Both the position numbers and the translations under genes were made by a program. This document shows positions 9,335-38,262 of a stretch of DNA of 64,000 nucleotides, piece after piece. A model generated the notes under the pieces. That model saw only the letters and a program-made list of their open reading frames with translations. It was not told where the DNA came from and ran no database searches. Every line of letters begins with the position of its first letter. The stretch's first letter is position 1. The stretch is from Volutella citrinella (lineage: Eukaryota > Ascomycota > Sordariomycetes > Hypocreales > Nectriaceae), in NCBI GenBank assembly GCA_034401135.1, contig JAWZSP010000010.1:248001-312000 (forward strand), read 5' to 3'.

Positions 9335-9992
9335 GTCGATCTGAATATCGTACCTTTTTCGTGTGATGAGGTGTAGAATGTAATTCCCATCAGATGCAGA
9401 GCTCAAGAGGTGAGGATAAGCAAGCGCCCTCTTATTATTAATACAAGCTGGTTACGTATCCATCGTGCAAGGCGTAGCCACTGGTATCTCATCGGAAATG
9501 TCACTGGCTCCTGCCAAATTCGAAATAGGGTAGACAATGCACTGTGGCTGTGCATTGTGGCTTGCGACTGTGATATCTATGAATTAAAATAAAAGAGTAT
9601 CAAAGTCGCGAGTGATAAACAATACGTCTACTAGGAATCTCAAACACGTTGTAGGACCATTTAAAGCTACACGCTGCATCAATTAGTGGCGGCGATCCAA
9701 ACAACAGGAGCTTAGGAACCCTCTCGCGATGCAATGGTTGAGAAAACAAAGGCAAAAAAAAGAAAAAGGCAGTCAAAAAAACATACAACAGCGGGGATTC
9801 CCCGGTCGTCACCGACCCGAGTACTAGTCCGCCCCTTACCAGCTTAACTATGGGAGAGCGGACGGGATCCCGTGTTCTCTAGTAGGTATGGTCGTATGTG
9901 CTAGATCGAGGCGCAGATTGGACATTTATAGAGATGGGTGTGAAGCGAGACGAGACTGCGCACTTATATTGAGCTATCTTCCCTACTTCTGT
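9335..9992. other. No gene seen; upstream region of the hydrolase
   Basis: Contains short AT-rich frames only. The first 200 bases presumably include the hydrolase promoter, read leftward. Confidence 0.45.
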
Positions 9993-17322: not shown

Positions 17323-18630
17323 TCTGCCAATACGTAGGGGTCATTTACTATTGGTGTGTGGCTGGGTTGCTGAGAAGGCGACGAACCGCGGCGGGAGTCT
17401 ACTCTTTCAAGGCCCAACGACGGTACATCTTGCCGCTGGTCGGAAGAGCGGTGTCAAGGTCGGGCTTACACTATCACAGAGTGACGAAGCAGTCCACAAT
17501 CATCATAGCATTTTAGCTTGAGTGAATCACATGGATAACGTTGATTGAATTTAATAGCGGCCGCACTATTCCCTAGGTTGACTATTACGCATCTTTACAT
17601 AATATTAGAGCCTAACGCTAATACACAGTGCGAAGGGTCGCCCCGCGGATCGAAGACCCTATTGAACCGGGCTGAATTGAGTGAACTGTGTAAGTGTGTG
17701 CCGGGCCTGCTTTTCCCTGCCCTTGTTGGGCTTTGGATCACGCAGGGTTACAGCGCTAGGCCCATGTTAGGCTAGCATTATTATGTAACTGTTCCTTCTA
17801 CGACCCTGAGGCTGGTTTGGGCTTTTTGCCCCCAAATGCGCATATCGCGGGTTCAACACCACCCCCCCAGACTGAGAACCCTTATTGGCCTGAGCTGATA
17901 TTTCCCGCAACATATGGCCTCGTGGCTTCGTGCGGCCTGTGACCTCGGCCCTCATAGCCCGAGTTAACTAGTAGTATCAGCTACTAGAGAAATTCACTCT
18001 CAATGCTTTCGTTACCAGTCACGGGCTTCTACTGGCGTTCGTACGCTGCATTACTAGTCTTCTAGGCTTTATTCTTAGCTTTAAGGCTTGAATCTCTTTC
18101 CTACATGTTTATTCGCGAGCTTGTCCTGACGGTTTGTAGCCGCCTTAAAGAATGGCAGCTCTGAGACTCTTAATTATTGACATATGCGATAATATAATAT
18201 AGGGACCGAAATGTTTGATTCAATCTATGTGCCTGATTTTCAAGAGGTTGTGTCCGAGCCCTTGTTCCAACTCCACCTCAAGACCATGTGCATTCCCTGC
18301 TATTGGGGAGCATTCGTGTTTCTGCCACGGCGATTTAGACACTATTACAAGCGCGAGCCAAGGTACCCTACTCTTCTATTATTAATTGTCGTGTACCCTC
18401 AATTGTCGCCTGCCCCTGTAAAAAATGGCTGTCATCTAAACCCGGGCTATTTCCGTCATCAATCCTACTAACTTGAGATGACCTCATTGCTTTTTCTTGA
18501 TTACTCATTTACACGCGTCGCGTCGCGTCATATCGTGGCACACGTGTTGTAGCATGCTTCTTTGCTCTTCGATGGTCATTTTTGTTCTTGAAGCCATCAT
18601 CTTGAATCACTCCCGAGATATAGCCCAATC
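17323..18630. other. No gene seen; degenerate sequence
   Basis: About 1.3 kb with short frames only. The first part would hold the permease promoter. Beyond about 17550 the sequence has many stops and no motif I recognise. Confidence 0.45.
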
Positions 18631-20480
18631 ATGGATCTTGATAACCTCTTTTTACCACAATTCCTTATGGCGGATTATTATATGTAAGGAGTGTAAAACT
18701 GTACCGCAGACCGATCTTTCCCATCATATCCGCCTCTACCACAATCCGATGCGTATTCACAAATCTGCTACAATCAAGTCATTTGTGCAGACCTTCGATC
18801 ATCTGCCATTGAGACAAGACCCAGATGAGATCTACAAAGCGGTCCGACCATTGCCAGGTGCCGCGCCTATTCGATTTCTCAGTGTATTCTACGATGGCAT
18901 TAGTTGTCAGCTCTGCGAGGATGACACAAGCCGCTATATCTGCCGAGGTCGCACAGCTATTGAAGAACACCTGAGGAAAATACATGGTCAATCGCCTCGT
19001 AAGCCAGGTCGACGATGCAGTGGGTCGATTGGTGGCATCGAAGGGTTGGTCCATGCTGGCTTGGTACGGAATCAGGTGCCGTGTCAAACTCTCTTCCGCA
19101 ACTCTCGATGTCGTTATTTTATGGTTGCCGGCCAGGGAAGCCAGCACCGGCTGGATATAGTCGCAGAAACGCCGCGCCCAGAGGACAATGGGACACACAA
19201 CGAGCCTAGGCGTTCTGCGTCCGGGCTTCAGGATCTCATAGACCTTGAGCTCGCCAGGCAAGAAGGAGAAGAGGATTTCAGTGCAACGCAGGAAAATGAT
19301 TCCATTCACCTCATGTCTCGAGACGTAAGGCACCAATCACAGTGGCTCCAGATGACTGAATGGCCTCGTTTTCTAGAGCCCCATAAGCACGAGCTGTGCC
19401 ATGTTGCCGCATTAACCTTTCTACCTGATTCAGGCAAATCACATGAACAAAGCGTCACAAACAGCTCAGATGCTCCACTATTCATTCTCCTCGGCTCTCT
19501 TGATCGCATTATAGCCCGAGCCCGGCGCTCGCTAAAGGAAGGAAGGCTGAATATATTTGACCAGCACCGGCTTAACTCATTCATTGCCGGCCGCTCATCG
19601 CAGAAGCCAATCATCCACAACTTGAAGGAAGAGACATACAGGAAGTACGGGCGGGTTCTCCAACACTTACTATGTTACGTCTTTCGCCTTGCGTGGCAGA
19701 AGAAAGGGCCAAGACTGCACTATCGGCTCACCGACGGGCAGGCAGTCGCAATGCTCGAGGCAGTCCGTACGGCGTCAGAGCTAGCTCAGAGCGATGGCGA
19801 TGGGCTCAGTCTAGATCAAGCCGAGGACCTCAGGAAGAGACTTGGCGATAGATGTCTTGTGTTCATGGTCTCACTCTTGGACCACAAGCTATACAGCGAC
19901 ATTTACGACAGCATTGTGGTTGGATTTCTTGCCGCAATAGGTATCCGGCCAGGTTCAAGATCTAGCACTGGGCAACAGTTATACGATGCCGCCGATTTTA
20001 CTCCCAAGTTATCAGCAATCATCAAAATGGGTCAACTTCTTGTTGCGGAGAGGGCTTTGCTCGCAGTCGAGCTTGATGAAGCCGATGTCCCAGCCCGAGT
20101 GCTGGAAGAGAATGCAAGATCGGTTCATGACAAAGGACTCAAGGTCACCGATCAGCTGGTCGTTGAAGCTTCGCGCCTATGGCAAAGCCATCAAGGATAA
20201 TACAACGAGTCTTGGTCATATCATTTGGTCAGATGACAATGAAATGCTGAGCTATAAGAAGATGCAATTCTCAATGACAGGGCTCCGAAATCTTGTCGCT
20301 ACAGAGGTCAAGGCCGCTCAAAGCCAGTTAGCCGACCTACTTCTCGTCCCACCCGATACTGAGAGGGAAGACATTATACCCAAAATCAGCTTGCGGTCAT
20401 TATTAGATGATCCATCGGAGGGTACACCAGGCTGGAACTTTACTCAACATCCACAAAATGAAGTTACTTCTAGTTCGTGA
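18631..20480 (+). pseudogene. OrsD-like (DUF3505-type) zinc-finger protein, truncated and frameshifted
   Basis: The best start is the ATG at 18631 (MDLDNLFLPQ), after which a one-base shift near 18668 enters the long frame that runs to 20200. Zinc-finger-like units are visible: CKECKTVPQTDLSHHIRLYH near the start, and CQLCEDDTSRY...EEHLRKIH about 75 residues later, the pattern of OrsD-like domains. Further on come WPRFLEPHKHELCHVAAL and DQHRLNSFIAGRSSQKP, and LDHKLYSDIYDSIVVGFLAA, segments I associate with the long N-terminal part of fungal RecQ-associated subtelomeric genes. An extra A at 20111-20112 shifts the frame; the sense continues in the next frame (SLKLRAYGKAIKDNTTSLG) until about 20460, then is lost. 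A RecQ relic lies on the opposite strand 3 kb away. It is not a working gene. Confidence 0.75.
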
Positions 20481-21622
20481 TAAATAAAGAGGAAAACCGA
20501 ACCCTCGAAGCCGCAGTTTCCTTTCCCCTTATTGTGAGTAGCTTAGAGCCATTCCCAACTTCCTCGATTATTTTGTGATTTGCGCGCTGGAATAAAACGG
20601 TCCGTTGCAACAGTTCCGAGCAACGACTAGTCAAGGCCCTTCTCCTCAAACTGCTGTCGTTCAAAACATATATTTTAAGCCACGTCTCTCGGATAACGCT
20701 GCTCTGTCGTTCCCACTCGCTGATATATTCAGAAGGCTCTATTGGGCAGGCTTTGGAACGCCTTGTGTGCCCTTGTTGCCCACAACTCGAGCAGGTAGGC
20801 GCTGCCTTTGGCCGTATAGCTTCCTCAACGTACTACACAGGCCGCTACAGTCACAGAAACAACAACTCACACAACAACGCGGTCTATCACACGCTCAGCA
20901 TCACCGGCATTGCCTTCCAGCTCCTCGCCAATATCTATCAACGACTACCCAAACAACAACTCGTACAATAATACGTGTGGTGACCCCTCCAGTGGCCTTG
21001 CCACAGCCGGAAGCTCACACTTTGCCATCTGATGACCCAATTGCAATTTTTCAACGATACAAAGAAGGTCGTGATAGTTGGTATAACAACCTGCCCCAAG
21101 CGGCGCTCAAGACCAACCAACAATATCGAAGAGCTATGGGGCTCCCTTTCAATACAGCAAAGAGAAATACCACTTCTGCCTTGACTATAAGCAGATGGGG
21201 AGTAAATGTAGGATCGGAAATAGCATTCGAGACGGGAACAAGGAAGAGATGATGAACTATCTTGATTGGGATGATGCTGAGAATACGCGGGTTGAGGAGA
21301 ATGTTGCAAAGGAGCTGGCGGCCCAACCGCATATAGCGCGGCGAGGGATGCAACATATCTCGGGTGGCCATTTTGGGAATGCCCTGCAGTTTGGAGTGGG
21401 TTACGGTTTATTTTCAGGCTGAATTAATATTGTCATTGATCAAGGGTTATTAAAACCAGTGCAACTACAGGCAAGTCATGAAGAGTTCAGGGGAGCATGT
21501 TCTGTATACTAGTATGCTCTGTTCTGAAGAAAAGCCCACACTTTAAAGTCCGGGCAACCTGCTTAACTGGCAGGCCAATTAAAATGAAGGAGGCTCGTGC
21601 ACCAATCCCAAATCTCCCCAAC
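20481..21622. other. No supported gene; overlapping frames of unknown origin
   Basis: A 215-codon plus-strand frame (20605-21252) and a second one (21195-21422) are open, but neither shows a family I recognise. They may be decayed continuation of the OrsD-like gene or of another repeat. Confidence 0.35.
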
Positions 21623-22684
21623 ACACTAATCCAAATCCTGATTGACCGTTACGTTATTCCAATTATGCGATATTAAACGCTGCAACTCTCCGTTCCCTTG
21701 GGATGCTTCATAGTTTGCAACCTCAGCGATAGATGCGCACCCATGCTCAGGATACCAGAACACCTCGTCAGTATTTAAGCCGTGTTGTAGGAGCGCCTTC
21801 CAAATCGCTTCTGCATTGTGATCTATACTGTTGGTAGGAAGTCTGGAGCTAGCCGAATTACCGTCGATGTCGGTGATATTGAAGTCAGCTCCGGCTTCAA
21901 GCAACAACGCCACACACCGGGCATCGAGGCTTACAGCAGCCCAAATCAATGCGGTTCGAACCTGGTCACAAAGACAGTCGACACCCGCGCCCAGGTCGAG
22001 GAGCAACTTTACGATAGAAGCCTAGCCACTCATGACAGCATGTATCAGTGCCGGGCGCTTTTCATCTTTATCTTTGTAGTCTCTGTAGGACCATTCCAGT
22101 ATTAGCTTTCGGTTAACAGAAGAAGGCACCTTTTGCACAATCTGGGTGATGAACTCCTTTTGGAGCGCCGTTGCACTCTCGAGGTGCTGGTCGGGAACCT
22201 GACCTCCTTGACTTATGGCCCTGATTGGGGAGATAACACTGAGGTGTATGAGGTCATCCGTTATGGCAGCTTCTCGGTTGAGTAGAGCTTGCGCCACCCA
22301 GAAGTTATGGTTATCAACGGCGAGCTCCACCGGCGTGATTGCATGTCTGCCTCGTTCGTCTACCCGAGCTCCTCGTTCGATTAGGGCATCGACCATTTTT
22401 GCAGCGGATGGGGCGAAGCAATACGCAACATGGTGCAGCGCAGTATTTCCATCGTCGTGTATGGGTAAATCATCCTCCAGCACTTTCAAAGCCAGGTGAA
22501 ATGCCACCAGATCCGAGTGCGAAATTGACCAGCGAAGTAGCTCCGGGTTCTCATTTTGCGCATCTCGTTTGAAGATATGCACGATGCAGTTTCTCAATAT
22601 GCCGTTCGTCATGGCTAAGGAGCTTAGATCATCAAAGGATAGGTATCCAATAACCATGGATATCAACTCGTTTGGTAGCCGCAT
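21623..22684 (-). pseudogene. F-box and ankyrin-repeat protein with one in-frame stop
   Basis: The minus-strand frame starts at the ATG at 22684 with an F-box-like segment (LPNELISMVIGYLSFDDLSSLAM truncated at both ends) and continues into ankyrin repeats: GNTALHHVAYCFA, VDALIERGARVDERGRHAITP, then, past the stop, LLLDLGAGVDCLCDQVRTAL and LLLEAGADFNITDIDGNS. The only lesion is a TAG at 22022-22024, in frame and followed directly by ASIVKLLLDLGAG, where a Gln codon is the simplest ancestor (CAG to TAG, a RIP-type change). The whole would be about 352 codons. F-box/ankyrin proteins in fungi are usually adaptors for ubiquitin ligases. Readthrough or a sequencing error would restore an intact protein. 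Confidence 0.78.
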
Positions 22685-23513
22685 TGTGAAGAGGGCTGGT
22701 GCTGGTGCAAGGAACTCAAAACCGTTGACTGTCTGCGAGCCTTGATTCTATGGGGAAGAGCGCCCTTCTTATACTTGCGTCCGAACCTGACGCTATTGGG
22801 CACGGCAAAACCAATCGGACGTAAGTGACCCAAAAGGATCACAACAGTCACTTAGTGATCTCGGTGATCCAATAGGATCACGACGGTCGCCCAACGAAGG
22901 GGCTGCCCCGAGCAGGTACCAAACCACGTAGACTAGTATAAGTAGAACCTACTATACTGCACGATGAAGAGGGCCAGCCTCTTCAGCTATCGATACAACT
23001 TGGTTACCGCAATCTACATTGCTTATTACCGGAGGTGACATTCTATTTGCCTCAACCGCCGATCAACGCTCAGCATTACGCCCTGGTGCACCTGTCAACA
23101 TTAACCCCAGTACGATTACTGCTGTTTACATAGTTGGAACCAGCCCGGTCGTCACAACTTGGTTCCTTGCAGAGAATACTCCATGCAGGGATCTTTTTAT
23201 TACCGTGGACAGCCACATTTAGACAAAAGAATCCGTGTGGAAAGAAGGCCACAACTCACTCCAGCCACCACTGTACTGTACGGTGAACGAACGTACGATA
23301 CTGTTCCAACCTCCAGAGTGGCAATACCGGCTGCAGACTAAGTCCTAGCTAAAGCTGACCGGACCTTGACATTTTCCCTCACTGACAATGGCAGGAGGAA
23401 AGAAGAGCGAGGTAATCCATCAATTATTTGCCTCCACTTCATGCCAGACCTAGACCGATCAATAGCTTCAGGTGGAAGCTGAGGGCGACTCTAGCTTTTA
23501 GCCTGACCGACAA
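22685..23513. other. No gene seen; short direct repeat
   Basis: Contains two similar 40-45 bp units, one starting near 22817 (GACCCAAAAGGATCAC) and one near 22862 (GATCCAATAGGATCAC). No coding feature is recognised. Confidence 0.45.
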
Positions 23514-24770
23514 CTATCGCGAGAGCAAGATCCCAATGAGCTCCATGAGCCTGGGGCCTACGCCACGACCCCTGTAAAGCCACCCGAATTCCCATAGCGC
23601 AATATTAGCAAAACCGGGATGAAAAGTAACGCTATCCGACGACATCTGAGCTTTACCATACCCCTGACTCGTCATCGGAGTCTGCGGAGAGCGTTTCGGC
23701 AAAATGGGTCTCGTCCATCTTTCAAGGAATGGATGAAAGGTCTGATGAACCAGCAGCACTTTCGCGCGCGACTTCAACGTCATACCAAGACGCAGCCCGA
23801 GTCGTCGGCGTGACCCAACAGGGCGAAGCGCGCACATCGACCATGCAGTGGCCGGATGAAGTTCTCAAACTGCTGCGATGACTGCATGACTTTGCCTGTC
23901 GCTATCCAGTCGTCCACCTGCATCTTCCTGGACCGGCCGATGAAGTTTTCCAGTTCCAGGTCGATGGCATGGGGTCCTATGCACCCACCATGTCGTGTAG
24001 TGAGGGGCTCGATATTGTGCATGCTAGAGTCGCAGTTATCACACGGCACCTCGCCCACCTCGCAGCCACGTCTATCTCCATCCACATCCATAACTCAATC
24101 TAGTAACGCACAACAGCACCCTCAACCGAGGAACACGCGCACGTTTGGATCAGTTTCAAGTAGCAAGTCTCTGAATACGACAATAGATATGCTCAGCTTC
24201 CCGTCTCACCCCGCGCATCCACTCCTATACATAGTCGCACAAAGACCGCAAGAACCCTGCATAGGTCACCAAGCGGATGTCAGGCTTGTCTAACACAAAA
24301 CCAATCGCAGATATAGCCACAATAAGGCCGCCGCCCCTGACGCTAGAGGACTACCGCCATACCGCTAGCTGCACCCGCTTGCCGTCGGCATGTCGACTGT
24401 GCTATAGTACGCTTCGCGCTGCAGCACATTGGCGAGGTCCTTGGCGTGGGCTGTAGCCTGGACGTATACTATGGCTTTCACCGGCAGGTTGCGCTCCGTC
24501 CATCTGAGGGCAGCGACGCCGAGAGGCATGTAATCTGCGCGTGCCATGACAGCACGGTCGGCCCAAGCTTGAGTAGCTCTGGGCGGGATGTCGGTCGAGT
24601 ATCCAAAACGAAGTGGCACTCGTCGAACACGACCCGATCTAGTTGTTACCGGGACCGAAACCTGGCAATGAACTGGCCGAATCTCATCGAGACTGCAGAC
24701 TCGGGCGTGACGATGACAATACTCGCACTCCGCATCAGCAGGCTGTGATGTTATGATCCTCGCAGCGCTA
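23514..24770 (-). pseudogene. Relic of a RecQ-type helicase (subtelomeric type)
   Basis: Several minus-strand fragments in different frames follow the order of a RecQ helicase. Near 24640-24720 lies SIVIVTPESAVSMRFGQF, then VVFDECHFVLDTRP with the DEAD/H-box motif DECH. Near 24400-24480 lies KAIVYVQATAHAKDLANVL, the start of the C-terminal helicase lobe. Near 24230-24300 lies DKPDIRLVTYAGFLRSL, a decayed version of the arginine-finger region. Near 24040-24091 a D-G-D...C...C-D-x-C cluster resembles the zinc-binding region that follows. The blocks need several frame changes and contain stops, so nothing functional remains. The neighbouring OrsD-like gene (18.6-20.5 kb) is of the kind that precedes such helicases, but it is on the opposite strand. 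Confidence 0.68.
23525..23620. repeat. Copy A of a diverged ~100-bp duplication
   Basis: Shares GAGAGCAAGAT.CCAATG.GCTCCATGAG and further matching blocks with 28033-28135, same orientation, with several substitutions and small indels. Confidence 0.65.
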
Positions 24771-24988
24771 TAATCGGTCGGAAGATGCCCAAGTCGACAG
24801 AGTCAGGAAAGTGGCAATATGGAGTGTGATGGCAATAGCTATTATGTATATTTAGTTGATTTGTGATTGACTATCCTGATCAATGATATCTGGTCTTTGG
24901 AAGTGAATAAACCCTTGTACCCGACATCAGCCAACCACCTTCGCCTTTGTACATCCTCTACTTAACAGCCAAGCCGTAGATTCTTCGC
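24771..24988. other. AT-rich spacer
   Basis: Short AT-rich stretch with no feature between the RecQ relic and an unknown ORF. Confidence 0.4.
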
Positions 24989-25530
24989 TTATACTGAACA
25001 ATAATCTCCTTCTCTGAGAAATTCCGCCGTGACCCGGTTAAAACAGAATGGCGTATACCCTGGCACTCGAAAAAGACTTAATATTGGTTCATGAAACAGC
25101 GGCTTAAGATATACCACTCCATTTTCATAGATTGAAATTGGCAACCGATTTGTGGTCCAGGAGGTATCACGAATTATAATCGGACAAGAATTAAATCTTG
25201 CATGAATAATATTAAGTGTCGCGGTCTTAAATCGTAGTTCAATTGTGGCTTTGCCCACAGAGTGTTCACGCATTGAAGCTTTAATAAGGCCTAGGTATTT
25301 ATCATGAGGAATCTCGGCGTAGTCTCGGGTTAAAAGCAACAGATAGAAGTAATCTTCGTCCTTCCTTCGGATAAGGGCTGGTGATATATTTGCCGACTTC
25401 AGCTCGTTGGCCCAATTATAGTTTTTAAAAAACTGTTCCCACAGCAGTCGATTATCCTTTTGAGGCTTATTTACAGCGCTTGAAAGATGAGTACTGTATG
25501 TGCCAAAATAAAGTTAAGTAAATCTGGGGG
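24989..25530 (-). CDS. Unrecognised AT-rich ORF, partial
   Basis: The minus-strand frame is open for about 180 codons from a TAA near 25525 down to 24989; no in-frame ATG opens it early, so it is probably part of a larger gene or an exon. The sequence looks like protein rather than chance: charged and aromatic residues are evenly spread, with segments such as DNRLLWEQFFKNYNWANELK, YFYLLLLTRDYAEIPHDKY and SLFRVPGYTPFCFNR. Codons are strongly A/T-ending, unlike the GC-rich genes nearby. I cannot assign a family. A RIP-altered remnant of a repeated gene is one explanation. Confidence 0.3.
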
Positions 25531-28271
25531 AGAAAGCTTGTCAGCTACTTTATGCCAGATGTCGTGATGAAGAGGTGGCATTATAACTTAGATAACCACT
25601 TTACTAAACCAATAGAGAGTAAAGTCATTATCAGTTTCCTGACGCTTATATATAGTATGTAAAGTGTGGCGCTGTTACTATCTTTTCACAACGGCCTAAA
25701 AAGAGCCACTTCCGGCCGCCTCACCCTGAGTTCGATTTTATACTGAAAGGTGGGGGGTGGGGGGGCCAAACTGGCTGTGTAGCCAGCACATCCCAATTCG
25801 ACGCTCAGTCGTTCGTTTTGCCAGAGTTCATTCCCTTCCTCGACTTTACAGTACTCAATAAGTGTTGACCGTAACGGGCCCCGTTACGTCTTCTCGCCCC
25901 GTTTGCCATAGATCGAGGTGTTGTAGCGGCCCTATGAAGTCTGGAAAGAGTAGCCAATCATTTCCATGCAGCTCGCTCAGTTCTGAGTGATAAGTGATAG
26001 CACTTGAATCAGATGCATCCTGGGACCCCGCGTATTGGGCGAATTCAGTTTACTGGCAAGAACCACTGAGACCCAAGGTAAGAAAAAGGTCTTCTATACT
26101 GTTCCTTCGTTAGTGAGACTACAAAGACCGTTCTACACGGTGGTTTTCGGGTTCGGGGCTATTTCAATCACTCCATACCCGACTCAGATGGTCCATGAGA
26201 AAGAAAGGGTCTAGGGGGAACCTGGATTGCTGTTGGCCAAGAGGGATAGCTGGGAATTTTACTTCACACGGAACTTGAACACATTTACGTCACTTGAAAG
26301 GCCAATATTGGACCTGGATGCCGGCTTTGTACCGAGGCCTACTGCCTGGAAGTTCTGTTGCTTAGTTTTAGACTGTTCCAGCCCGAAGCCTGCACAGATT
26401 TTCTTTTTAGAACGGCAATTTCTGGACGCATGGTCTTTAAGTAGTGAAGCTTACAGTTATTCATTTGAGCCTAGATCCAAATATGGAATTTGACTATCTC
26501 TGCAGAAATCTAGCCGTTTGATCCTCTCCATCTGACGATAAGTCGGGTGAAATGTTGAGTTGCCCATATGCTGGGACTCGGAAGGGTCCCTGCGATACGG
26601 CATCCGTCATTGTTCCACGCCAGATAGCCTGACGGGGGCCAATGAGTCTGAATGGACCATGTCCAATTTTCACTAGCCCGGTCAAATTATTATTGAATTC
26701 AACCGCAAGGCAATGGGCATCCGCAGACAGTAAGAATCCTATGCACGATGACCTGCCCCTTGAATCGACGGATTCCATTACGGGCGAAATTACCATAGGA
26801 ATCAGACAGCCGCAGCCCCGATAAGACACCAAGTCTGCATCGAGATACCTCGACCTAACAACCTATCTGGGCACCCGGTCGAAGAGCGCTGCAGCAAATC
26901 AGATGGCTCGAAAGATGACGAAACCGTGCCAAACGCTGACGTCTAGAGGACGCCACAAAGCAGAAACCGCCGCGTCTCCTGCACATCAGCCAAACTAGAC
27001 TACTAGGAAAACTTTCAATATATAACGGCGTATCAGACCAATCATAGGCCATTAGCTCCCGAGGTGCGATCACACCAGCGGCGCTGATACATGGTTGATG
27101 GAAGTCCATCCGGCTTGCACAATTAGCGAGAGTGCGATGACGGCTCTAGCTAGGGAAAAGTGCCTTCTGCACTATGCCTGACGACTTACCCAAGCTCTGG
27201 CTGTCTGGTCTGCTCATTAATCGATATCCTATTGTGTTTCGTTTCTTGGCCAGCTTCCATATCTGCTCACAAGCGTCACCAGTAGCCCAGCTCGGCCTTT
27301 TTCTCTTCCCCCCCATAAATGTTTTGTGAACAGAAGCCGTAATTGTAGTAAGCCCCTTGCTTTGGACCTGGCTGACTGGCAACGCGCATAAAGTTTCTAG
27401 CATTGGTCCCATAGTCGTATTGCGGGCATTGACGGCGTCTTTGCGCGGGACTCTGGGGTATTCTCGATGCTCGGCTGCACGGAAGTCCTCTAGATGACAC
27501 TACGCACAAAATGCCGACAAGGGCTCGGCGGCTGGGCTCACCGTCAGCAGTGGCAACCATCGTTAAATTTGCGTATTTACTGAGCTCGCATGCATGAGGT
27601 ACCCCTGGATGCCGTATGAGATCCTTTGGGTTGACGTAAAGTGGAGGGGAGTCGTTGACAGAGAAGCTCTGTGTCTGCAGTGTTGCCACCCAGGGTGAAC
27701 CCTTTCGAAAAGTTGGTATACGTATGTCGCACGAAAGGGGAGCACAGGCAAACATTTAGCCATAAAGCCATAATAAATAGAGACATACTAAGCAAGGTGA
27801 TGCGATGGATCACCATGAAGATACCTGACTTGATGACACTCACTTTAGTCCATGTGATGGCACTGTAGCCAACTGCTAAGTCATGCCTATTCCTACGACG
27901 TACGTACAGTGGGCCCTCTTCATGTAATCGCATGTTTTGCCCCGGCGACACCGACAGCGATGCCATGGAAGTGGGACTGGATACTGTTGGCACCGAGCGG
28001 TTGCCATTGAGCAGGTGTGCATCTAATTCGTTCGCGAGAGCAAGATACCAATGCGCTCCATGAGTTTGGCACGGTGGGAGGCCTACGTCACGACCTCCGT
28101 GAAGTCATCCGAGTTCTCGCAGCGCGAGATTCGCATAATCTTAGGGTTTATGTGCAACCGGCTGTGCATCTTTGCCCGTATGACCCTGCCCGACGGGTCG
28201 GAAACCTGGCCGGTTTAGGCCGCATGCACGAACAGATAGAAGCGGGCCAGACATTGCTGCGAGTCTAGACC
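25531..28271. other. Gene-poor stretch of about 2.7 kb
   Basis: No convincing gene. A minus-strand frame at 27577-27993 is open for 138 codons but has no recognisable family. The rest shows short frames on both strands. The diverged repeat copy B lies at its right end. Confidence 0.4.
28033..28135. repeat. Copy B of a diverged ~100-bp duplication
   Basis: Direct-orientation partner of 23525-23620. It lies just downstream (minus-strand sense) of the PD-(D/E)XK relic. Confidence 0.65.
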
Positions 28272-28905
28272 CTAGGAAAACGAAGCGGCAGCGGCGCCCC
28301 TACGGCTGGCGTGAATACTGATGGCATAGGCTACCATCTTGCCTGCTTGATAGACAGGAAGGTACTCTGGGATGATTCTGGCTGTCATGCTAGAGAGAAT
28401 TCTGATGAGATGGTGTTCGATATCTATTGTTTCACCAGACGGAAGACATACCACGTGGTCGTTCGCAGGCGCGGAGTAACGATGCTGCAGCTAGACAGGG
28501 CAGTCTTCAGAAGAGGTGTATGCACCAAGTTGTTCCAGCTACAGTCCACCTGCCGCGTGCCAGGTAATTTCGGTCGTAGCTGCACGGAGGGTCCATGGCT
28601 TCGGCTAGGAGCACGAGCCACTAAGTCTCGGCGTTTCACCATTATCTCTGAACTTTCCAACTCTTGGGAACCAAGACTGATAATGGCAGTGATTGGTCGT
28701 ACCTACAGGATTTGCAAGCTTGTGCATCAAGCACTTGCAGGTCTATCCGGTCTGGACCGGCAGGTGCTATCACATCTTGGTTCCGGATCCTCTCGGCTAC
28801 AGCGGCACAGACCGCCGTGGAAAGTCCTTCATTGGCTTTTGGCGCTTCGAGGTCGTCCGAAGGGTGCGCGCTGGCCTTTGTGTCTTGATCAAATGCAGAG
28901 CGCAA
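28272..28905 (-). pseudogene. Relic of a PD-(D/E)XK nuclease-like gene
   Basis: Minus-strand fragments match the two intact paralogues in this window. One frame carries CSWNNLVHTPLLKTALSS, nearly the same as ASWNNLVHTPLLLHTLSS in the 35-kb gene. The next frame carries TARIIPEYLPVYQAGKMVAY, matching the ASIIRDYLPVAFQPKMIDF block of the 3-kb gene. In this relic the first acidic residue of the active site (Asp in MIDF or MVDY) is Ala. The two blocks are in different frames and the ExK segment downstream is not recognisable. An upstream frame (28642-28905) may hold the preceding helical region. This is a dead third copy. Confidence 0.72.
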
Positions 28906-30129
28906 AAATGCCGTGCGGACACTGATTGTCTCTCATCTCTTCTTTGTCAAATGCTTTAAATAAGCAGAGGTTCTGTGGTTGCAAGCTTCAGCAAGCTTAA
29001 GGTGGCCCTACACTGTCTGCCTCCATCATCAGCGCGCCGAGCCACCCTTCATAGAACAGCTTCCCAGCCCCACGATTCAGGAGCATACGCTCCGCTAGTC
29101 CACCATGGACAGGTTTGCCGTGCGAATAAGAGAGAAGCGGTGCCAGGGTAGAGTTGGTATTCTCGTACTACTGTGTGACCGGTTCGCTAATCGCCTACAG
29201 CTTCTGGTTGATCATTTTGGTCATCTCCCTGCCAAACGCAACTTGGGGCTCTGGAGGCAGTACTGAGTGTATTACTACAGGAGGCAGTCGAGAAGCGAGA
29301 AGAGCAGAAACAAATCGTTAGCTTCATCCAGTCAGTGGCGACTGACACGCAGACCCTCGTGTTGGGGAGCACGTCAAGTAGTCGAATAAATAGAGGCAAA
29401 GCGGCACCAATAGCGGCCAATGAATGCATTTCAATCCACGTCACTGAGTGGGCACGACAGAGAGGCGTGAGGAGGCCTGGCTCAAATTACAGGACTTGCA
29501 CGAGAGTCGATATCCGACCCGCCGTTTTTGGAATTAGTGGGAGAACCTGGTAAATGCCGGGTTGTATACACGAGATCGAGACGGCCAGAGTAAACCTAAC
29601 GATTGTCGCGATACCCCGCATCAACTACAACGATAGTCCGGAATATCATAATTCATAACCGAAGTTGTAGTAGTCTACCCGTTGTAATGCCTCTTAACGC
29701 GATTCTGACGAACAGGGACGTGTGGACAACACAGACGCCCCGAGAGATCAGGCGCAGCCCCGTGTTGTCTTCGCCTGTCTCCGGATGGGCTGTGTAGTGG
29801 AGCGAGATGAGTCCCCGAGAAAGTTCTTCCTACTTCTCAATTCCCGAAGGTGAGCCGGTGCCCTCAGCCGACGAAGCCATGCGTTGGGGACGCAAAGTCG
29901 CCCTGCTCATCAAACTGGTCACCCTATTTCAACATTGTTTGCTACGCGCTCTCTGCTGCGGCGCCGAAGTGACCTTTTATTATGCTAAATAAAATTCCAG
30001 TGCTAGAGCATGTAACATGTAAACTTATGGTTGATCTGAGTTCCAATGCATGTTTGTGGGCCAACATGCCATCCCCCAAAGGCTTGGTGTGTCCCCAGGT
30101 ATGGCTTGTTGTGTTAAGGCTCCGAGCTC
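28906..30129. other. No supported gene; left flank of the LINE
   Basis: Short frames only. A plus-strand stretch at 29270-29400 (LLQEAVEKREEQKQIVSFIQ) looks coding-like and coiled but is brief and unassigned. The LINE homology does not extend left of about 30130. Confidence 0.4.
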
Positions 30130-32184
30130 GTGCATATAGTTTGTAGGCGCATGAGAGTTCTTAGCTTGATTAGCTTTGATCTTAAAGGAGCCTACAATGG
30201 AGTGTGCAAAGAAAGGCTTCTCCAGAGAATGAGAGCAAGAGGCATCCCCGAACAGTTGCTGACGTGGATCGATGCCTTTTGCACCGATCGAACCGCGACC
30301 ATTCGTGTCAACGGACAGGCGTCAGAGAAGCGAACTCTACCACAAGCGGGACTGCCGCAAGGCTCGCCGCTGTCGCCGATCCTGTTTCTGTTCTTCAACG
30401 CGGATCTGGTGCAGCAGCGAATTGATTGCTACGGAGGCTCCATTGCATTCGTGGACGATTACACGGCGTGGGTCACGGGGCCCACGGCGAAGAGTAATCG
30501 CACGGGTATGGAGGCGATCATCACAAGAGCCCTTGCCTGGGAGAAGAGAAGTGGAGCAACCTTTGAGGCAGAGAAGACGGCAATCATACACTTTGCCCCC
30601 TCCCGTAGGGCACACGCGTCGGATTCAGAGCCATTCATGATCAGAGGGCAAAGTGTGCAGCCTACGGAGCGTGTCAAGGTCCTCGGAATGGTCCTGGACT
30701 CAGGGCTGAGGTATCGAGAGCACATTGCTCGTGCAGCCACCAAGGGCCTGGAGGCAGCCATGGAACTACAGCGACTGAAGGGTCTTACCCCCGCGACAGC
30801 GCGACGGCTATTCACGACCATGGTGGCCCCGGTCGTTGACTACGCCTCTAATGTCTGGATGCACGCATGCAGGTATAAGAGGATAGGCCCAGTAAATCGA
30901 GTCCAGAGGGTTGGGGCGCAAGCGATTGTGGGGACGTTTCTCACGGTGGCAACGTGGGTAGCTGAGGCGGAAGCGCATATCATAAGCGTGCATGACCGGT
31001 TTTGGAGGCGAGCGGTTACGATGTGGACCGATCTGCATACCTTGCCGACGACAAACCCCCTCCGCAGGACCACATCTTGCATCCGAAAGTTTAGGAGATT
31101 TCATCGCTCCCCGTTTTATGAGATTGCGGTCGAACTCAAGGCTGTACCGTCGGAGGAGCTAGAGACAATCGACCCATTCACAATAGCGCCCTGGGCAAAA
31201 AGGATACAGACCATCATCGAGGAAGACGACGTGTCACGGTCGAGACAGACAGACCTGAGCTGGTCAGTTCGCATTGCAGTGCGCAGCTCTGCGCGTAACA
31301 ACATCGTAGGACTTGGTGGAGTCATCGAGATCCCTGTCTCGGTGCGAGGAGGGCCCAAGCTCGAAACGTTCTCATTCACGCTAGGCGTGAGAACGGAGCA
31401 GAACCCGTTCTCTGCGGAGCTTGCGGCGATGGCCTACGCCTTCCGGCATTTACCTGACATGAGATATCGCAGCATTGCAGTGTTAACGAGTAACAAGGCC
31501 GCCGTATTGACAATGGGTAATCCTTGCCAACAGTCAGGCCAAGAGTTCGTTCGCTGTGCTTATAAGTCGCTTGAGTCACAAAAGGAGAGGGGAAACACGG
31601 TAGCTATCATGTGGGTGCCAACCAACGACCAACACAGACTCCTTGTAAAGGCTAAGAGTCTTGCACGGAAGGCAACCCGAGAAGATGCGAACCCGGCACT
31701 CAAATTCCCCGGCATGCGGTCTACGACCCTCAACATTGCACGGGCACGCCAAGCCACTAGTGGAGCACCCCCAGACAAAGTAGGAAAGTTTTCTAAGAAG
31801 AATGACATCGCACTACCTGGTAAACACACACGAGAGCTGTACGACAAGCTGTCATGGAAGGAAGCCAGCATTCTAGCACAGCTCAGGACAGGCATGAACA
31901 GGTTGAACGGATATCTATTCCGGATCATGGCAGCATCGTCACAGCTGTGCGCATGTGGTCAGGCGGCAGAAACGGTCGACCACTTTCTCTTCCGGTGCCA
32001 GAAATGGGCCCAACACCGAGCTGAGCTCTACAATTGCATGAACATGAAGAGAGGGAATCTATCATTCTTTCTAGGGGGTAAATCACTTTCGGACGACGAG
32101 AAATGGACACCCAATATGCAAGCTGTCCATGCAACGATTCGGTTTGTCATTGCCACCGGGCGTTTTGATAATGCGCAACATTGA
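30130..32184 (+). mobile_element. 5'-truncated Tad-like LINE, ORF2 3' half
   Basis: A single open frame of 684 codons to the TGA at 32184. It holds the C-terminal half of a non-LTR retrotransposon reverse transcriptase: SFDLKGAYNGV (first catalytic Asp, about residue 17), GLPQGSPLSPILF, and AFVDDYTAW (the FxDD box, residues 107-110). An RNase-H-like region follows (ELAAMAYAFRHLP near residue 437), then a zinc-knuckle-like CACGQAAETVDHFLFRC, arranged as in fungal Tad/I-type elements. ORF1, the endonuclease and the front of the RT are missing, so the copy is 5'-truncated, the usual fate of LINE insertions. There are no stops, so it is either recent or has escaped RIP. A 3' untranslated region probably runs to the (TG)n tract at 32490. 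Confidence 0.88.
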
Positions 32185-32488
32185 ACCCAGATTGGGCTAA
32201 CACCCACCTTTCACTAACCTACCCTAAAGCGACTATCTCGTCGCGGGACAGCAGGCGCCGCTTCAGTCGCCGTAGATAGGACTCTGGACACTTGGAGAAT
32301 CGCCTTCAAGTAGGCTTGCTGGCAATACAATATTTCCCTCGCGGGGATAAGAAGGATGAAGAGATATGAACACAAAGGCCGAAATTGGACTTGCGTAAGG
32401 GCTACCAGGAGACATGACTACGTTGTGGAACCAAGTCTGTACCATAGCAAAGAGTGCCCTATTGGCTGTGAGCCACCGGGCGTAATAA

Positions 32489-32489
<1 letters not shown>
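32185..32489 (+). other. Probable 3' untranslated region of the LINE
   Basis: About 300 bases between the LINE stop codon and the (TG)n tract. It ends CGTAATAAAT just before the repeat. No gene is seen. Confidence 0.4.

Positions 32490-32519
<30 letters not shown>
32490..32519. repeat. (TG)n microsatellite
   Basis: About 14.5 perfect TG units. It lies at the likely 3' end of the LINE and at the exact left border of the ApT-poor stretch, so it may be the LINE tail. Confidence 0.92.
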
Positions 32520-32521
<2 letters not shown>

Positions 32522-33897
32522 CCCGTCCTTCAACTACCACCCTCTTTTACACACCACAACCCCAACCAGCGCTTGACCCCGACAGCGCCTACCTCCTCCT
32601 GCTCGCACTAGACGCCAGTAAAGACGCCCACTGTTACTTTTGTTTACACAGCAAACAACCCCGTCAACTACAACCACCCTCCTTCACCACCCTGTACGCT
32701 CCAACCCGAGCTGCCTCTACTCTACCGCCGCCGCCCACACAGCGCTCAGTCTCCCTCTTTAACCTTACACGTTAGTTTTCTCACCCTCTACCCCTCTAAC
32801 TCTCCTCCTTCTACCCTTGCTCTGTTCCTCCGTCCAAAACTGGACCACACACCCACAACCACCCACCCCGACCTTCTCTCCTAACCCTCTTTCCTCCCTC
32901 CTCGAACCACCACTCTGTCTAAACTGAACTGAACCTTCGCCTCTTGTTACTCTACTAGCCGCAACGTTGACACTACTTACAGCTACTACAGAGACAGAAC
33001 TCACTTGAACACCCACCCGCCTCTTTTCTCGCTCTTTCACCTCCTTGCTCTGCTTCCTCACTCTCAACTGCTAACCCACTGTCTTCTTTCCAGCTCCAAC
33101 GACTCCCTCTGCCGACAAGCCTTAAACTACCTTTACTGCCTTCCCTGCCTTCCCTGCTCTACCTTGCCATTGTCCTCTTCGAAGCAACACTACAACACAA
33201 CAGCCACCTTACAACGACACTCTACAACCCAGTCCCTTTCCTTGACTCGCACCTTACCTCTAAGAACACCACGTTCTCTCTTCAACTCTACCGCTTAGCG
33301 AAAACGTCACTCTTAGGCCCCTTGGCCACCCCGCCCTAGCCCTCGAACCCTTACACTTTAAACGCCTTCCTTCAACGCCCACAACACCCTTCTAGCCCTT
33401 AGACCCTAGTCTCTCCTCTCTTCTCTCCTACAACGCTCCTCTTTCCACTAGTCAGAAGCTAGTCTCGCCTTCTCTTCAGTTCAGTCACGCTCAGAACCTA
33501 CCCTGCCACCTCCCACGCTTGCACCACCTAAGAGTACTACCGGGCTTGCATAAACGGCCACCCCTCTGTTTCTTACCTCTTCCCTACCGTGCTTCTCAGC
33601 CTTCTACAACTCTTCTCAGACTTTCCTCTTAGCAGCACGCCGTCCGAAGCCGCAGTCGCGCCCCCCGAGCGTCAGAGGTTAGTTTTACTGCCTTTACAGC
33701 TCTCCTCTGCCTTTGCACTCTTCAAACTAGACCTCCACGCCTAGAAACGACTAAGTGACCCTTGCTTCACCACCTCCTACTCTCGCCACTCTCCACCTTC
33801 CTTCTGTCTCCTCGTTCTTCTTTCTGACACTCCGTTGGTACTGCTGTGACTTTCTTCTAACTGTCAGCCGTTAACCTTTACCAGAAGCTCAGCACCT
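32520..33897. other. ApT-depleted, C-rich and G-poor tract of unknown nature
   Basis: By hand count only two ApT steps occur from 32491 to 33897 (at 33169 and 33550), against roughly 65 TpA steps. No ATG occurs on the + strand. C strongly exceeds G: for example 27 C to 5 G in 33001-33060, 24 to 5 in 33181-33240 and 28 to 5 in 33361-33420. Frames on both strands are short and rich in Leu, Ser, Pro and Thr (+) or Arg, Gly, Val and Glu (-), as expected from composition, with no recognised domain. Normal ApT frequency resumes around 33930-33970. No repeat unit is obvious beyond short motifs such as TGCCTTCCC. Confidence 0.85.
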
Positions 33898-33944
33898 ATT
33901 TTCACGCCTAAACGGCCACTACGCCCTTCCCATACGCTAGAGGT

Positions 33945-35167
33945 TGGTCAAAAAGGAGCGGTCGCTAGGGATGTAGATAGTAGGGGAGCAGAGGCAAATG
34001 TGGGCTATTTTTCTAGTAGGAAGTATATGTGTTGAGCTGGTCTCATTGTCTATGCCTCGCTGCTGTGCCACATAGCTGTTTCTATTCTAACACAGTCCGC
34101 ATCATACAGCCGCCTTCGAGTGAATGCCCTGTGACCGATCGATTTCGCCCCCTTCGAGACCCCCCCCGGGGGCCGACTAGGGTCGGCTAGGCGGGCAGCA
34201 GCTCTGCCGTCTCTGCATCAGCTAGGTGAATTGCGGCCGTGCAGCCACCAGGCAGCCAAGGGGAGAGGAGAAAAGAGAGCAGGTAATTTAAGACTGGAGG
34301 CGTCCATAGGACAGGGTAGAGCCCTTGTTTATTGAATCAGGTATACAGCGGTAGACCGAACTAGTTGGCTGGCCGGCCGGCTAGCTCTCTCGCTGGCATA
34401 TACTAACGTCCCCCAGCTTAGACCGGGTTTCTACTGCATATGATCATAATTTCAGGGGAATAATACTTCTCAGCCTTATTATTATTGCTGTTTTCTTATC
34501 GCAGTAGCGTCAGTACTAAATAGGGACGCCGCGTAGCCAGCTGGCCGAGTTAAGTGCCCTATTAGTAGGACGGGCTGTGATCGAGGCAGGAGAGCTGGGG
34601 GGTGGTCCTGGTTGCCGTGGCTCCATAGTGGCATCAATGAGGCCGGAGGCTTGTTTCGAGGATTTGTAGTGCTTTGTCCTCGTTGCTTTTTACTACGCGA
34701 CGTAGCATTCCCCTGCCGCCGCCTCCTTAGCTTGCTGTTGTACCTATGCTGGGATTGGTCCTCCCAACCTCCCTGCTGCCCACTCGGCGGCGGTGGAGGA
34801 GGAGGAGATGAGGGAAATGGCGAGGATGGAGATGGGACAGATTCTAAGGGCGATGGCACCTGGTCGAGGTCGATGACGGCAGTCTCTGGCGGTGCCTGGT
34901 TGTTACCCTTGTCTTTTTTTAGCGCCGCTCGTGTTCGCTGGTGGCGCCGCCCTGCCAGGGTGGGCGCGCGTACTCTGCCTGCCGGCAGTCATCAGCTGCA
35001 GCGCCTTCGCAGCCTGATCCCGGTCGGCCTGCTCGCTCCTGTCCACTGGCGTCGGCGGCAGCTGGTGTCCCCCCCCTCGGGGCCTTCCATCCAGAGCCAG
35101 CGTCAATGATAACAACGTTGCTCTGCACTATTGATGATTGGTTATTCTGTTCATTACTGCTAGATCT
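33945..35167. other. No assignable gene; low-complexity and coding-like fragments
   Basis: A C/G-rich palindromic patch lies near 34160-34190. From 34482 to about 35128 the minus strand has two linked frames rich in Pro, Ser, Gln and Arg (including PSPSSPFPSSPPPPPPP) that could be one low-complexity protein with a frameshift near 34903; the plus strand is also open. I cannot choose between them or name a family. Confidence 0.35.
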
Positions 35168-36574
35168 TCATGAAATGGCCCGAGATAGAAGCGAGGTAAA
35201 CCAGGGCTCAAAGGTCTTCTTGACCCAATCACCAAGCGCAAGCATAGCAGCCTGCAACTGGTAAACGCCAACAATGGTATCAGTATCACCAATCCGGAAA
35301 CTCCAATCGATAACACGCTGCCAGCTGTTAGAAAATAGTTTTCAAGACAAAAGTTTTACAAGGCTTACAATCTCGGTGCCAGCGTCCACTACAAAGAGAA
35401 GCGTCCACACAGCCCCGACGACCTGGATGACGGGGATGGTGATGACGCGGTGGTTTCCGCCGCCGAACTCGATGATGCTGCGCATCCGCTGGTGCCACGC
35501 CGCAACCCAGATGCCGAGCTGCACATTCGCCGTCTCCATGTTGCCCGCAGCCGTCTTGGTCTCGATGAAGATGGGCGCCGGACACGTGCGCAGCGGCTCG
35601 TACCTGGACTGGTTGATGGTCGCCATGGTGTGCGGCTGCCTGGCCAGGAACGTGTCAATGGCGCTCTCGAGGTCAGCATCAGGAAGCAAAACAACAGCGT
35701 AGTCGACCATCTTATGGACGCCCACAGCAGCCGTAGTCTTTGGCGTTCCTGGATCCTGGCCAGACGCACTGCTTGCACTGGACACGCTCGCCGCGTCGCC
35801 GGTCCTGGTCAGCGGACGGAACGCAGGCATGATGCGTGCAGAGGGAATGGGCTCGACTTCGAGATGCGCAAAGCTTGATAGTGTGTGCAGGAGGAGCGGC
35901 GTGTGCACGAGGTTGTTCCAGCTGGCCTCGCAGCGCCTGCGGTTGGCGGAGCGCGTGGAGCCGTCGAGTATGTTGCGGAGAGTTGCGTAGTTGGTCAGAA
36001 GCGCCGCCTCATCTTCATCTTCAGTGCACGGCCTCCACATGTGGCCGCGGACCCGGCGGAAATCAGGATGCGCTCGCAAGCCTTCTGGAATGATGCCCTC
36101 CTTGTTCTCAACTGCCGACAGAGCCTTAAAGAGCGGCTGCGCATCCTCGGGAAGAGCACTCTCTGGGTCAGGCTCTTTCATGAATCGCACGGGGACGGCG
36201 AGGTCGAGCAGCTTGGCCGTCGTACGGAACTGCTTCGAGGGCGATATGCTGCGCGACCGTGGGGCCAGCGGCAGAGTTGTGGGAGCTGAGAAGGGTAGTC
36301 CGCTGGAAAGGAGCGCAGTGAATGAGGACTTGGAATGAGTCGACGTTGCATCGTCAAAGACGGCTTCGTCGCTCTCCAGTCTGAAAGGCTGGTGCGGGGG
36401 GCGTGTGGGAGTCTGGGAAGGGTCTGGGGGAGGAGGATCGCTCGTCCGCGCCCGCTTTGATGGGCTGGGCATTGCGTCGGTGTCAGAGTGGCGCCGTCGA
36501 TGGGCCTTGGGTTGCGGTGCTGTGGCAGAGTCTTGCACTTCGTCAACCCACGCCTGGATGATGAGGGAATGCAT
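35168..36574 (-). CDS. Fungal PD-(D/E)XK nuclease-like protein (PDDEXK_12 type), one intron
   Basis: Exon 1 runs from the ATG at 36574 to 35369 (402 codons), a 51-nt intron spans 35318-35368 (GTAAGC ... CTAAC branch ... GGCAG), and exon 2 runs 35317-35168, giving about 451 aa. The splice joins VDAGTEI to RVIDWSFRIGD in frame; the first AG (after CTAAC) would give the wrong phase. The N-terminal ~120 residues are Ser/Pro-rich with a basic patch (SKRART). The nuclease-like core has MVDYAVVLLPD (Asp 291), PIFIETKTA (Glu 338, Lys 340) and VQLGIWVAAWHQR (Gln 352). The end, DWVKKTFEPWF, parallels the AETQFWPWYKQ tail of the 3-kb paralogue. All active-site-type residues are kept. Its role is unknown; two live diverged copies and one dead copy in 33 kb suggest local or dispersed family expansion. 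Confidence 0.85.
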
Positions 36575-36934
36575 ATCCAGAGGTGGATGTGTGATGCAGT
36601 GAAAGCATTCGAGGAATGACAGCGGGCAGTTTTTGGGCTAGACGCGGCTGGCGGGAGACTCAGCTTGATGGCTGGGTGTCGCAATATTGTTTGTTTTGAT
36701 TAGCTTGGTGTTGCCGCAATGCCCGGCCGGAAAATTGCAAATCCGGGTCGACCTGACTGGGGTTGGCTGATTACATAATACGCTAGCTGTTGGCTGCGGC
36801 TGCTGAACAGAGTTCGCGCTCGCTGAGTGGAGACAGCTCGTTTTATCCGTGGTACGATTGGCTGAACCGAAAACCGACAACCTACCGATAAACCCATCAC
36901 CTATCCCACCATAGATCATGAGGCTCTTAGGAAA

Positions 36935-37056
36935 TTGGTAGTTTGGCAGTGGTAGTTTAGGACCCTGTCGACGATCCGAACCCACCCCCGGACCCGTCCC
37001 GCATTTTCACTGGCCAGCCCTATAACCCCTAACTGGTAGTTTGGCCCAAACTACCA
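36935..37056. repeat. Cluster of TGGTAGTTTGG motifs with a 23-bp palindrome
   Basis: TTGGTAGTTTGG at 36935-36946, TGGTAGTTTAGG at 36950-36961, and a near-perfect 23-bp palindrome at 37034-37056 (TGGTAGTTTGG, one central base, CCAAACTACCA). It lies at the downstream border of the interrupted gene and may be a transposon terminus. Confidence 0.7.
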
Positions 37057-37599
37057 AGGGAATACTTGGTATGCTGTATAAAAAACGCAATCTCGCCACA
37101 GGGTCGGCGACCATTTGGTTGAAGGCCTCGGGGGCGGACTGGGCGTTCTTCGCCAGCCATTGCGCCTGGCGCAGCACGGCCGCGGGCCGCATGGCCGTAA
37201 CCACCTCTCGGCAGTCTGGGCTGAGTATGTCGATGGAGACTCCAGATCCCTCGGCTGGCTTCGCTGGCTTCTCCACGGGCTTACCAGCGTACCCCTTGAA
37301 GTCGGCGCATCCAAGATTCCTGGCTGTCGTTGGTTTCTTGCTCGACTTCTTCGCTGCTCGTGCTGCTGCTATCTCCTACTTCTGCTCCAGCAGAGTATCG
37401 AACAACTCTTCGTGCTCACGCCCGGGATCACCACCTTCTCCCCCACCCTGATCTTCGAAAGAATATCCTTCTTTCGGCCTTCTTCCTCTTTTCCTTCTAG
37501 GAAGCCGATGCTTTCCGTAGCCTCCTTACTGACTTCCTTATCCAATAAGCGATATCCGAATTCCAAGAGGCGTATTAGCACCCCGTCAGGTAGTGCCTT

Positions 37600-38097: not shown

Positions 38098-38262
38098 CGT
38101 TGGCTTGCTTGGCTGCTGGCTTGGTTGCTGGCTTGGTTGCTTGCTTGGCTGCTGGCTTGGTTGCTTGCTTGGCTGCTGGCTTGGTTGCTTGCTTGGCTGC
38201 TGGCTTGGTTGCTTGCTTGGCTGCTTGCTTGGCTGCTTGCTTGGCTGCTTGCTTGACGAGCT
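38098..38262. repeat. 12/24-bp minisatellite inside the element
   Basis: Repeated units of the type TTGCTTGGCTGC and TTGCTGGCTTGG, about 13-14 copies arranged partly as 24-bp pairs. The 12-bp period keeps the minus-strand frame (QASS/QASN). The 58.7-kb copy has only four to five units. Confidence 0.88.

What the first reader, a model, noticed from the sequence alone, without database searches (positions are those of the whole stretch)
32491..33897. A 1.4-kb ApT desert with extreme strand asymmetry
Seen directly: only two ApT steps (33169, 33550) in about 1,400 bases, although A and T together make up about half the sequence; independent use of the bases would give on the order of 80. TpA, built from the same bases, occurs about 65 times. 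C exceeds G three- to fivefold on the + strand over most of the tract. The borders are sharp: the left edge is the (TG)n tract and normal ApT returns near 33930-33970. RIP raises TpA/ApT, but it also makes DNA AT-rich, and this tract is GC-rich. I know of no fungal process that removes one self-complementary dinucleotide. Inference only: a strand-specific mutation or editing process, untemplated synthesis, or a data artefact.
Basis: seen in the sequence. Interest (0 to 1): 0.86.

Follow-up and report, generated by a model that had tools for sequence, protein, structure and literature searches.

The report
Fungal DNA tract missing ApT
A 1.4-kilobase stretch inside a repeated segment of a fungal chromosome contains almost no "A followed by T" although A and T make up nearly half of it; it is real and not chance, and looks as if an unknown process once erased that two-letter step.

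Summary
In 32491-33897 there are 2 ApT steps against about 76 expected, and 69 TpA; C exceeds G 3.2-fold. In 177 composition-matched 100-bp windows from the same genome ApT is normal (1,090 seen, 1,014 expected) and none has zero. The tract proper starts at 32520: the first 29 bases are the (TG)n tail of a truncated LINE. It is non-coding and not repetitive. The genome search found three copies, all on one 778-kb contig of an apparent Fusarium genome, inside a duplicated segment of about 19 kb. One of the two ApTs (33550) is a private mutation of this copy; the common ancestor had one to three, so the tract was nearly ApT-free before triplication, and an error at one place in the assembly is unlikely. 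It shows host-like tri- and tetranucleotide usage, which leans against purely first-order untemplated synthesis (1 of 200 simulations), and fits replacement of ApT by ApC, CpT or ApG better than simple avoidance (0 of 46 simulations). Best reading, inferred: a past, ApT-specific erasure. It is not RIP, although RIP formulas call it so. Cause unknown; no unerased relative was found.

The parts
32520..33931 (.). The ApT-desert tract: C-rich, G-poor on +, non-coding, no tandem repeats, homogeneous composition
33169..33170 (.). The only ApT inside the finding's span shared by all three copies
33550..33551 (.). ApT private to this copy; the other two copies read TT, so by parsimony a later change here
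32491..32519 (+). (TG)14.5, 3' tail of the LINE; five other loci of this LINE also end in (TG)n and then unrelated DNA
30155..32519 (+). 5'-truncated non-LTR retrotransposon (LINE); the frame open from 30118 runs to 32184 and has an RVT_1 domain; no target-site duplication seen by eye
18366..18417 (+). Left terminal repeat of the duplicated segment; its 52 bp occur inverted (98%) at the right end in the other two copies
18366..37071 (.). TIR-bounded segment, three near-identical copies on contig C10; the right repeat is missing here, probably by a deletion of about 400 b
18482..20200 (+). ORF with an OrsD domain at the left end of the segment
35342..36637 (-). PDDEXK_12 ORF; 97% identical to a Fusarium ambrosium protein

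Best explanation
The tract is templated, host-like, already C-rich DNA in which nearly every ApT step was changed, mostly to ApC or CpT on the + strand and sometimes to ApG, by a past process that recognised ApT and put C (or G) in place of the T or the A. It finished before the segment was triplicated and is not acting now. Shown: ApT absence beyond composition; three copies; one ApT gained since. Supported by moderate evidence: host-like word usage and the replacement spectrum. Inferred: that the change was mutational rather than selective, that it came as a short episode, and which strand was hit. The agent is unknown; a strand-biased lesion-bypass or deaminase episode would act in this way.
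For: ApT obs/exp is .03-.04 in the tract and 1.07 in composition-matched windows. The shared ancestor of the copies had 1-3 ApT in 32520-33930, and a random substitution creates an ApT with probability about .15, so erasure preceded triplication and little neutral drift separates the two. Order-3 and order-4 models trained on 166 kb of the genome score the tract above all 300 first-order simulations; a host order-3 model with ApT excluded comes as close to the tract's own first-order fit as only 1 of 200 simulations. Replacement of ApT by AC .43, CT .40, AG .16 beats plain exclusion by 6.5, and by 6.5 and 7.1 with half the training set; exclusion simulations reached at most 2.4 (6) and 3.7 (40). 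The sign is the same in 9 of 9 settings (5.2-8.2). In calibration the true one of four models won in 20 of 20 trials.
Against: No unerased relative was found: only the three copies match, in a search that skips very common words. TpA is not short (1.04 against .76 +/- .12 in 42 control pieces) although host DNA is TpA-poor. By AIC at order 2 a free first-order chain (3363.6) is slightly better than host plus replacement (3364.6). The word-usage signal is not significant at order 2 (.16-.17), is weaker when trained on C-rich windows only (.057 and .02 at orders 3 and 4), and does not tell the tract from its plain reversal. The replacement test rests on the dinucleotide table and would look the same under selection. 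ApT erasure alone does not explain the C/G skew or the GpG shortage. No second, unrelated tract was seen, and only about 209 kb were surveyed.
Confidence: 0.4

Rival explanations
1. The tract was born ApT-free by untemplated or loosely templated synthesis (a terminal-transferase-like or reverse-transcriptase activity that hardly ever adds T after A or G after G), possibly at the LINE junction.
For: Homogeneous composition (p .2), no significant structure above first order by the plain test (z 1.26; 1.83 for the next order), AIC of a free first-order chain as good as the host model at order 2, no relatives, abuts a retrotransposon 3' end, lacks the host TpA shortage.
Against: Host-like tri/tetranucleotide usage; A/C runs longer than in 400 first-order simulations (longest 26, fraction .0025); 1.4 kb of complex untemplated DNA has no precedent that I know of; five other loci of the LINE end in (TG)n followed by ordinary DNA.
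Confidence: 0.15
2. A functional constraint (for example on a long non-coding RNA or leader) removed ApT over time; duplication then relaxed it.
For: C-rich, G-poor, weakly folding + strand; without ApT no ATG, TATA or AATAAA is possible on either strand (follows from the definition).
Against: Avoiding such signals does not require losing every ApT; RNA folding is on average as in first-order simulations; no transcript data; no conserved relative seen.
Confidence: 0.2
3. Foreign DNA from an unsampled source with extreme ApT avoidance.
For: Mobile-segment context; no match in this genome outside the copies or in phage and plasmid records.
Against: No genome with such avoidance is known to me; one paper reports a relatively constant ApT obs/exp ratio across the species it sampled (PMC12695648, passages seen); host-like word usage.
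Confidence: 0.12
4. Assembly, base-calling or file artefact.
For: The extreme, text-like character of the pattern.
Against: Three separate loci with 10 substitution differences among them; plain reversal finds no significant match in the fetched DNA and is not favoured by host word usage once ApT and TpA words are left out.
Confidence: 0.05
5. Chance or ordinary low-complexity pyrimidine-rich DNA.
For: Rich in CT and CA words.
Against: 0 of 177 composition-matched windows lack ApT; only two 12-mers occur twice, the rest once.
Confidence: 0.03

Closest known systems
Repeat-induced point mutation (RIP)
   Same: A fungal process that alters one dinucleotide context in a past episode; RIP formulas give TpA/ApT 23.67, substrate .76, composite 22.91 for the tract, beyond the product and composite cut-offs and the looser substrate cut-off (.9) quoted in PMC6714961 (passages seen)
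   Different: RIP is C to T, mainly at CpA, and lowers GC; here GC is .533, CpA and TpG are near expectation (.93, 1.00), and ApT is what is lost. Two RIP-like segments in this genome have GC .34 and .37 and TpA/ApT 1.65 and 1.54
6mA at ApT dinucleotides (AMT1 pathway)
   Same: ApT is the methylated context
   Different: Reported lost in Dikarya and not correlated with ApT depletion (PMC12695648, passages seen); one MT-A70 match in this genome, type not determined
Strand-biased T>C mutation at ApT (human signature SBS16; recalled)
   Same: ApT context, strand bias, T to C
   Different: T to C alone fits worse than exclusion or the mixture; not known to me to clear a kilobase
Terminal transferase / untemplated polymerisation
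   Same: Choice depends on the preceding base
   Different: Host-like higher-order usage; length and complexity without precedent known to me. PMC8291772 (abstract and start of the introduction seen) concerns TdT in vitro

Membership tests
RIP | C-to-T change, GC lowered | tested here: not met
   GC .533 against .517 for the rest of the window
RIP | CpA/TpG depleted, TpA enriched | tested here: not met
   CA .93, TG 1.00, TA .94
RIP | Index formulas | tested here: met
   product 23.67, substrate .76, composite 22.91; met because ApT and ApC sit in the denominators; the strict substrate cut-off of .75 is just missed (cut-offs)
RIP | Acts on repeated DNA in the sexual cycle | tested here: inconclusive
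   Three copies exist, but the ApT loss is older than the triplication; sexual cycle not testable
6mA at ApT | AMT1-type methylase and 6mA signal | tested here: inconclusive
   One MT-A70 match, not typed; methylation not testable here
SBS16-like T>C at ApT | ApT to ApC only | tested here: not met
   4.7 log units below exclusion and 11.2 below the mixture
Untemplated first-order synthesis | No structure above first order | tested here: inconclusive
   Leans against: 1 of 200 and, at orders 3 and 4, 0 of 300 simulations reach the tract; but order 2 is not significant
Part of the LINE | Shared by other LINE copies | tested here: not met
   Homology to the five other LINE loci examined stops at (TG)n
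Protein-coding DNA | Long frame, 3-base periodicity, relatives | tested here: not met
   Longest frame 122 aa; no 3-base period; search with the 122-aa frame: none of 42 candidates significant
Tandem or simple repeat | Repeated units | tested here: not met

The most novel reading that the evidence does not exclude
A fungal genome-modifying activity that targets ApT and replaces one of its bases by C or G on a preferred strand erased essentially every ApT in a kilobase-scale tract in one episode, a process with no counterpart known to me, which RIP indices misfile as extreme RIP.
Probability: 0.25. Interest if true: 0.9.

Novelty: categorically new. Interest (0 to 1): 0.68.

Why it matters
No process that I know removes one self-complementary dinucleotide from a kilobase while leaving GC content normal. 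If an erasing process is real, it adds a new kind of context-specific mutagenesis in fungi. In any case the tract is a counter-example for RIP scans: its TpA/ApT is about 15 times that of two RIP-like segments in the same genome. The question is directly testable by finding one unerased ortholog.

Tried and rejected
Plain reversal: local search of the fetched DNA gave five short matches of 15-25 bases at E 0.26 or worse; the reversal scores better than the forward strand when all words count, but with ApT and TpA words left out the difference is not significant. An excess of reversed 11-mers shared with the window (74 against 56 +/- 9.5) is about 2 s.d.. The genome-wide search with the reversal was not run.

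Coding under swapped letters: of 48 letter permutations and reversals, one gave a clearly longer frame than its simulations (307 against 134 codons, 0 of 150); its translation resembled nothing I know and it was dropped as one of 48 tries. Three other transforms had fractions of .03-.05.

Other dinucleotide-poor stretches on the contig (ApG-poor, C10:624.4-626.2 kb and 630.3-631.9 kb) were followed as possible analogues. The first is an almost wholly open OrsD-type coding frame that avoids CpT; the second borders a RecQ-like ORF and has normal ApT (1.17). They do not explain the tract.

Relatives: whole genome, phage and plasmid records and proteins gave none beyond the three copies. No eukaryotic nucleotide collection was available. 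Paper searches listed no title or abstract on an ApT-free tract; beyond listings I saw only the abstract and start of the introduction of PMC8291772 and passages of PMC6714961 and PMC12695648.

Time bound: with one ancestral ApT at most about 32 neutral substitutions (2.2% of sites) separate erasure from triplication at 95%; with three, by the same formula worked by hand, about 52 (3.7%). Two of the three ApT-changing differences between copies (32873, 33899) cannot be polarised, because this copy and copy two are near-identical. A first comparison with copy two was in the wrong orientation and was replaced.

Full report
Observation. The desert is real. In 32491-33897 two ApT occur against about 76 expected and 69 TpA are present. 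The first 29 bases are the (TG)n tail of a LINE, so the tract runs from 32520 to 33931; ApT returns at 33932 and GpG at 33942. GpG is short too (8, obs/exp .36). C is .41 and G .12-.13. In 177 non-tract 100-bp windows chosen for a similar C-rich, G-poor make-up (some lie in the other copies of the duplicated segment), ApT is 1,090 seen against 1,014 expected and no window lacks it; the 39 tract windows (copies included) hold 7 against 204.

Where it lies. The window is bases 248001-312000 of contig C10 (778,381 b) in a 45.1-Mb, 26-contig genome. A PDDEXK_12 protein near the tract is 97% identical to one of Fusarium ambrosium over 98% of the query and 96% to one of F. decemcellulare over 57%. 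The host is thus probably a Fusarium, but the gene lies in a mobile-looking segment, so the species is open. The genome search found three matches to the tract, all on C10, at 99-100% identity; it skips very common words. They sit in a duplicated segment of about 19 kb whose left end is a shared terminus with three different left flanks and whose right end carries the same 52 bp inverted in two copies; here that right end is missing. Diverged copies of the terminus occur elsewhere on C10 and on C9. Since copies two and three share sequence beyond the inverted repeat, the duplication may not be simple transposition. The right flank (33931-35340) also matches only the three copies, so no empty site was found.

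Left border. A truncated LINE (30155-32519) ends in (TG)n; five other loci of this LINE end the same way and continue into unrelated DNA. No target-site duplication links 30155 and 32520 (by eye). The left border is therefore a retrotransposon junction and the tract may once have been longer.

Not coding, not repeated. No frame above 122 aa on + or 101 aa on - lies wholly inside, there is no 3-base period, only two 12-mers occur twice, composition is homogeneous, and both strands fold on average like first-order simulations. One protein search with the 122-aa frame found nothing significant among 42 candidates.

History. The three copies differ by substitution at 10 sites in 32520-33930. The ApT at 33550 is private to this copy. 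33169 is shared by all. At 32873 and 33899 this copy and copy two agree against copy three, so direction is unknown. The common ancestor had one to three ApT. A random substitution makes an ApT with probability about .15, so the tract can have drifted only a few per cent between losing its ApTs and being triplicated, and at least one ApT has arisen since.

What kind of process. I compared models on 32520-33890. Host DNA without the tract was used to train models with free base tilts. Pure single replacements fit no better than exclusion (AC -4.7, CT -0.9, AG -34.0, TT -29.9, AA -46.4, GT -54.0 log units). In calibration with four models the true one won in 20 of 20, though exclusion beat CT by as little as 1.8. 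A mixture of replacements (AC .43, CT .40, AG .16, others about 0) beats exclusion by 6.5 and by 5.2-8.2 over nine settings; exclusion simulations gave at most 3.7 in 46. These simulations were made for order 2 only. First-order simulations that carry the tract's own dinucleotide table show a like gain (4.1-13.0 in 9 of 9), as they must, so this result is about that table. By AIC at order 2 a free first-order chain (3363.6) slightly betters host plus mixture (3364.6) and betters host plus exclusion (3367.6); at order 3 trained on all host DNA, host plus mixture (log-likelihood -1669.2, AIC 3354.4 by hand) is better. The replacement bases are C and G in about the proportion that the tract already has, which a selective history could also give.

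Templated or not. A first-order chain with the tract's own table would be expected if the DNA had been made without template. The host-trained order-3 model with ApT excluded trails the free first-order fit by 8.0 log units; in 200 first-order simulations it trails by 23.0 +/- 6.7 and only 1 does as well. With all ApT and TpA words left out, order-3 and order-4 models trained on 166 kb of host DNA score the tract above all 300 simulations, order 2 does not (.16); trained on C-rich windows alone the fractions are .17.057 and .02 for orders 2, 3 and 4. Twenty host pieces show a like excess (median z 2.1, range -0.7 to 5.4, with themselves in the training set). Against this, the plain order-2 test is not significant (z 1.26), the tract lacks the host's TpA shortage, and the signal has no direction. 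I read this as moderate evidence for templated, host-like DNA that lost ApT.

Known processes. RIP formulas give extreme values (TpA/ApT 23.67, composite 22.91), but CpA and TpG are not spent and GC is not lowered; two RIP-like segments in the same genome have GC .34 and .37. One repeat pair, C10 against C4, differs by 25 C-to-T and 9 G-to-A against 8 T-to-C and 2 A-to-G changes, as RIP would leave, though the contexts listed are CpA, CpG and TpG alike. ApT is the 6mA context of other eukaryotes, but the AMT1 pathway is reported lost in Dikarya and not correlated with ApT depletion (PMC12695648, passages). T-to-C at ApT with strand bias is known in human tumours (recalled), but T-to-C alone does not fit.

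Verdict. The tract is a real, strange, unexplained thing seen at one ancestral locus. The best class of explanation is past erasure of ApT from ordinary DNA; the agent is unknown and selection is not excluded. A single ortholog would decide most of it.

Noticed in passing
L007:8450-10000 and L037:1-150 (C10:624450-626150): OrsD-type coding frame (open apart from one stop at the end of the stretch) whose coding strand strongly avoids CpT (obs/exp .21 against .92 for ApG), with leucine mostly TTG and few NCT codons: a strand-specific dinucleotide avoidance in an apparently intact frame.
   Followed up: partly
L037:4300-5900 (C10:630300-631900): C-rich, G-poor stretch beside a RecQ-like helicase ORF, with telomere-like CCCTAA units; a relative near the end of contig C4 shows an excess of C-to-T and G-to-A differences.
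   Followed up: partly
window 18366-37071: TIR-bounded segment with an OrsD-type ORF at its left end and cargo (ankyrin/F-box ORF, LINE, PDDEXK_12 ORF), possibly a large transposon family on C10.
   Followed up: partly
window 38103-38255 and 59175-59219: 12-base minisatellite GCTTGCTTGGCT in two copies of a repeat family of about 1 kb that also borders the duplicated segment.
   Followed up: no
L034:2901-3900: RIP-like AT-rich segment (TpA/ApT 1.65, GC .34).
   Followed up: no
window 9780-9899 (-): 5S rRNA gene.
   Followed up: no
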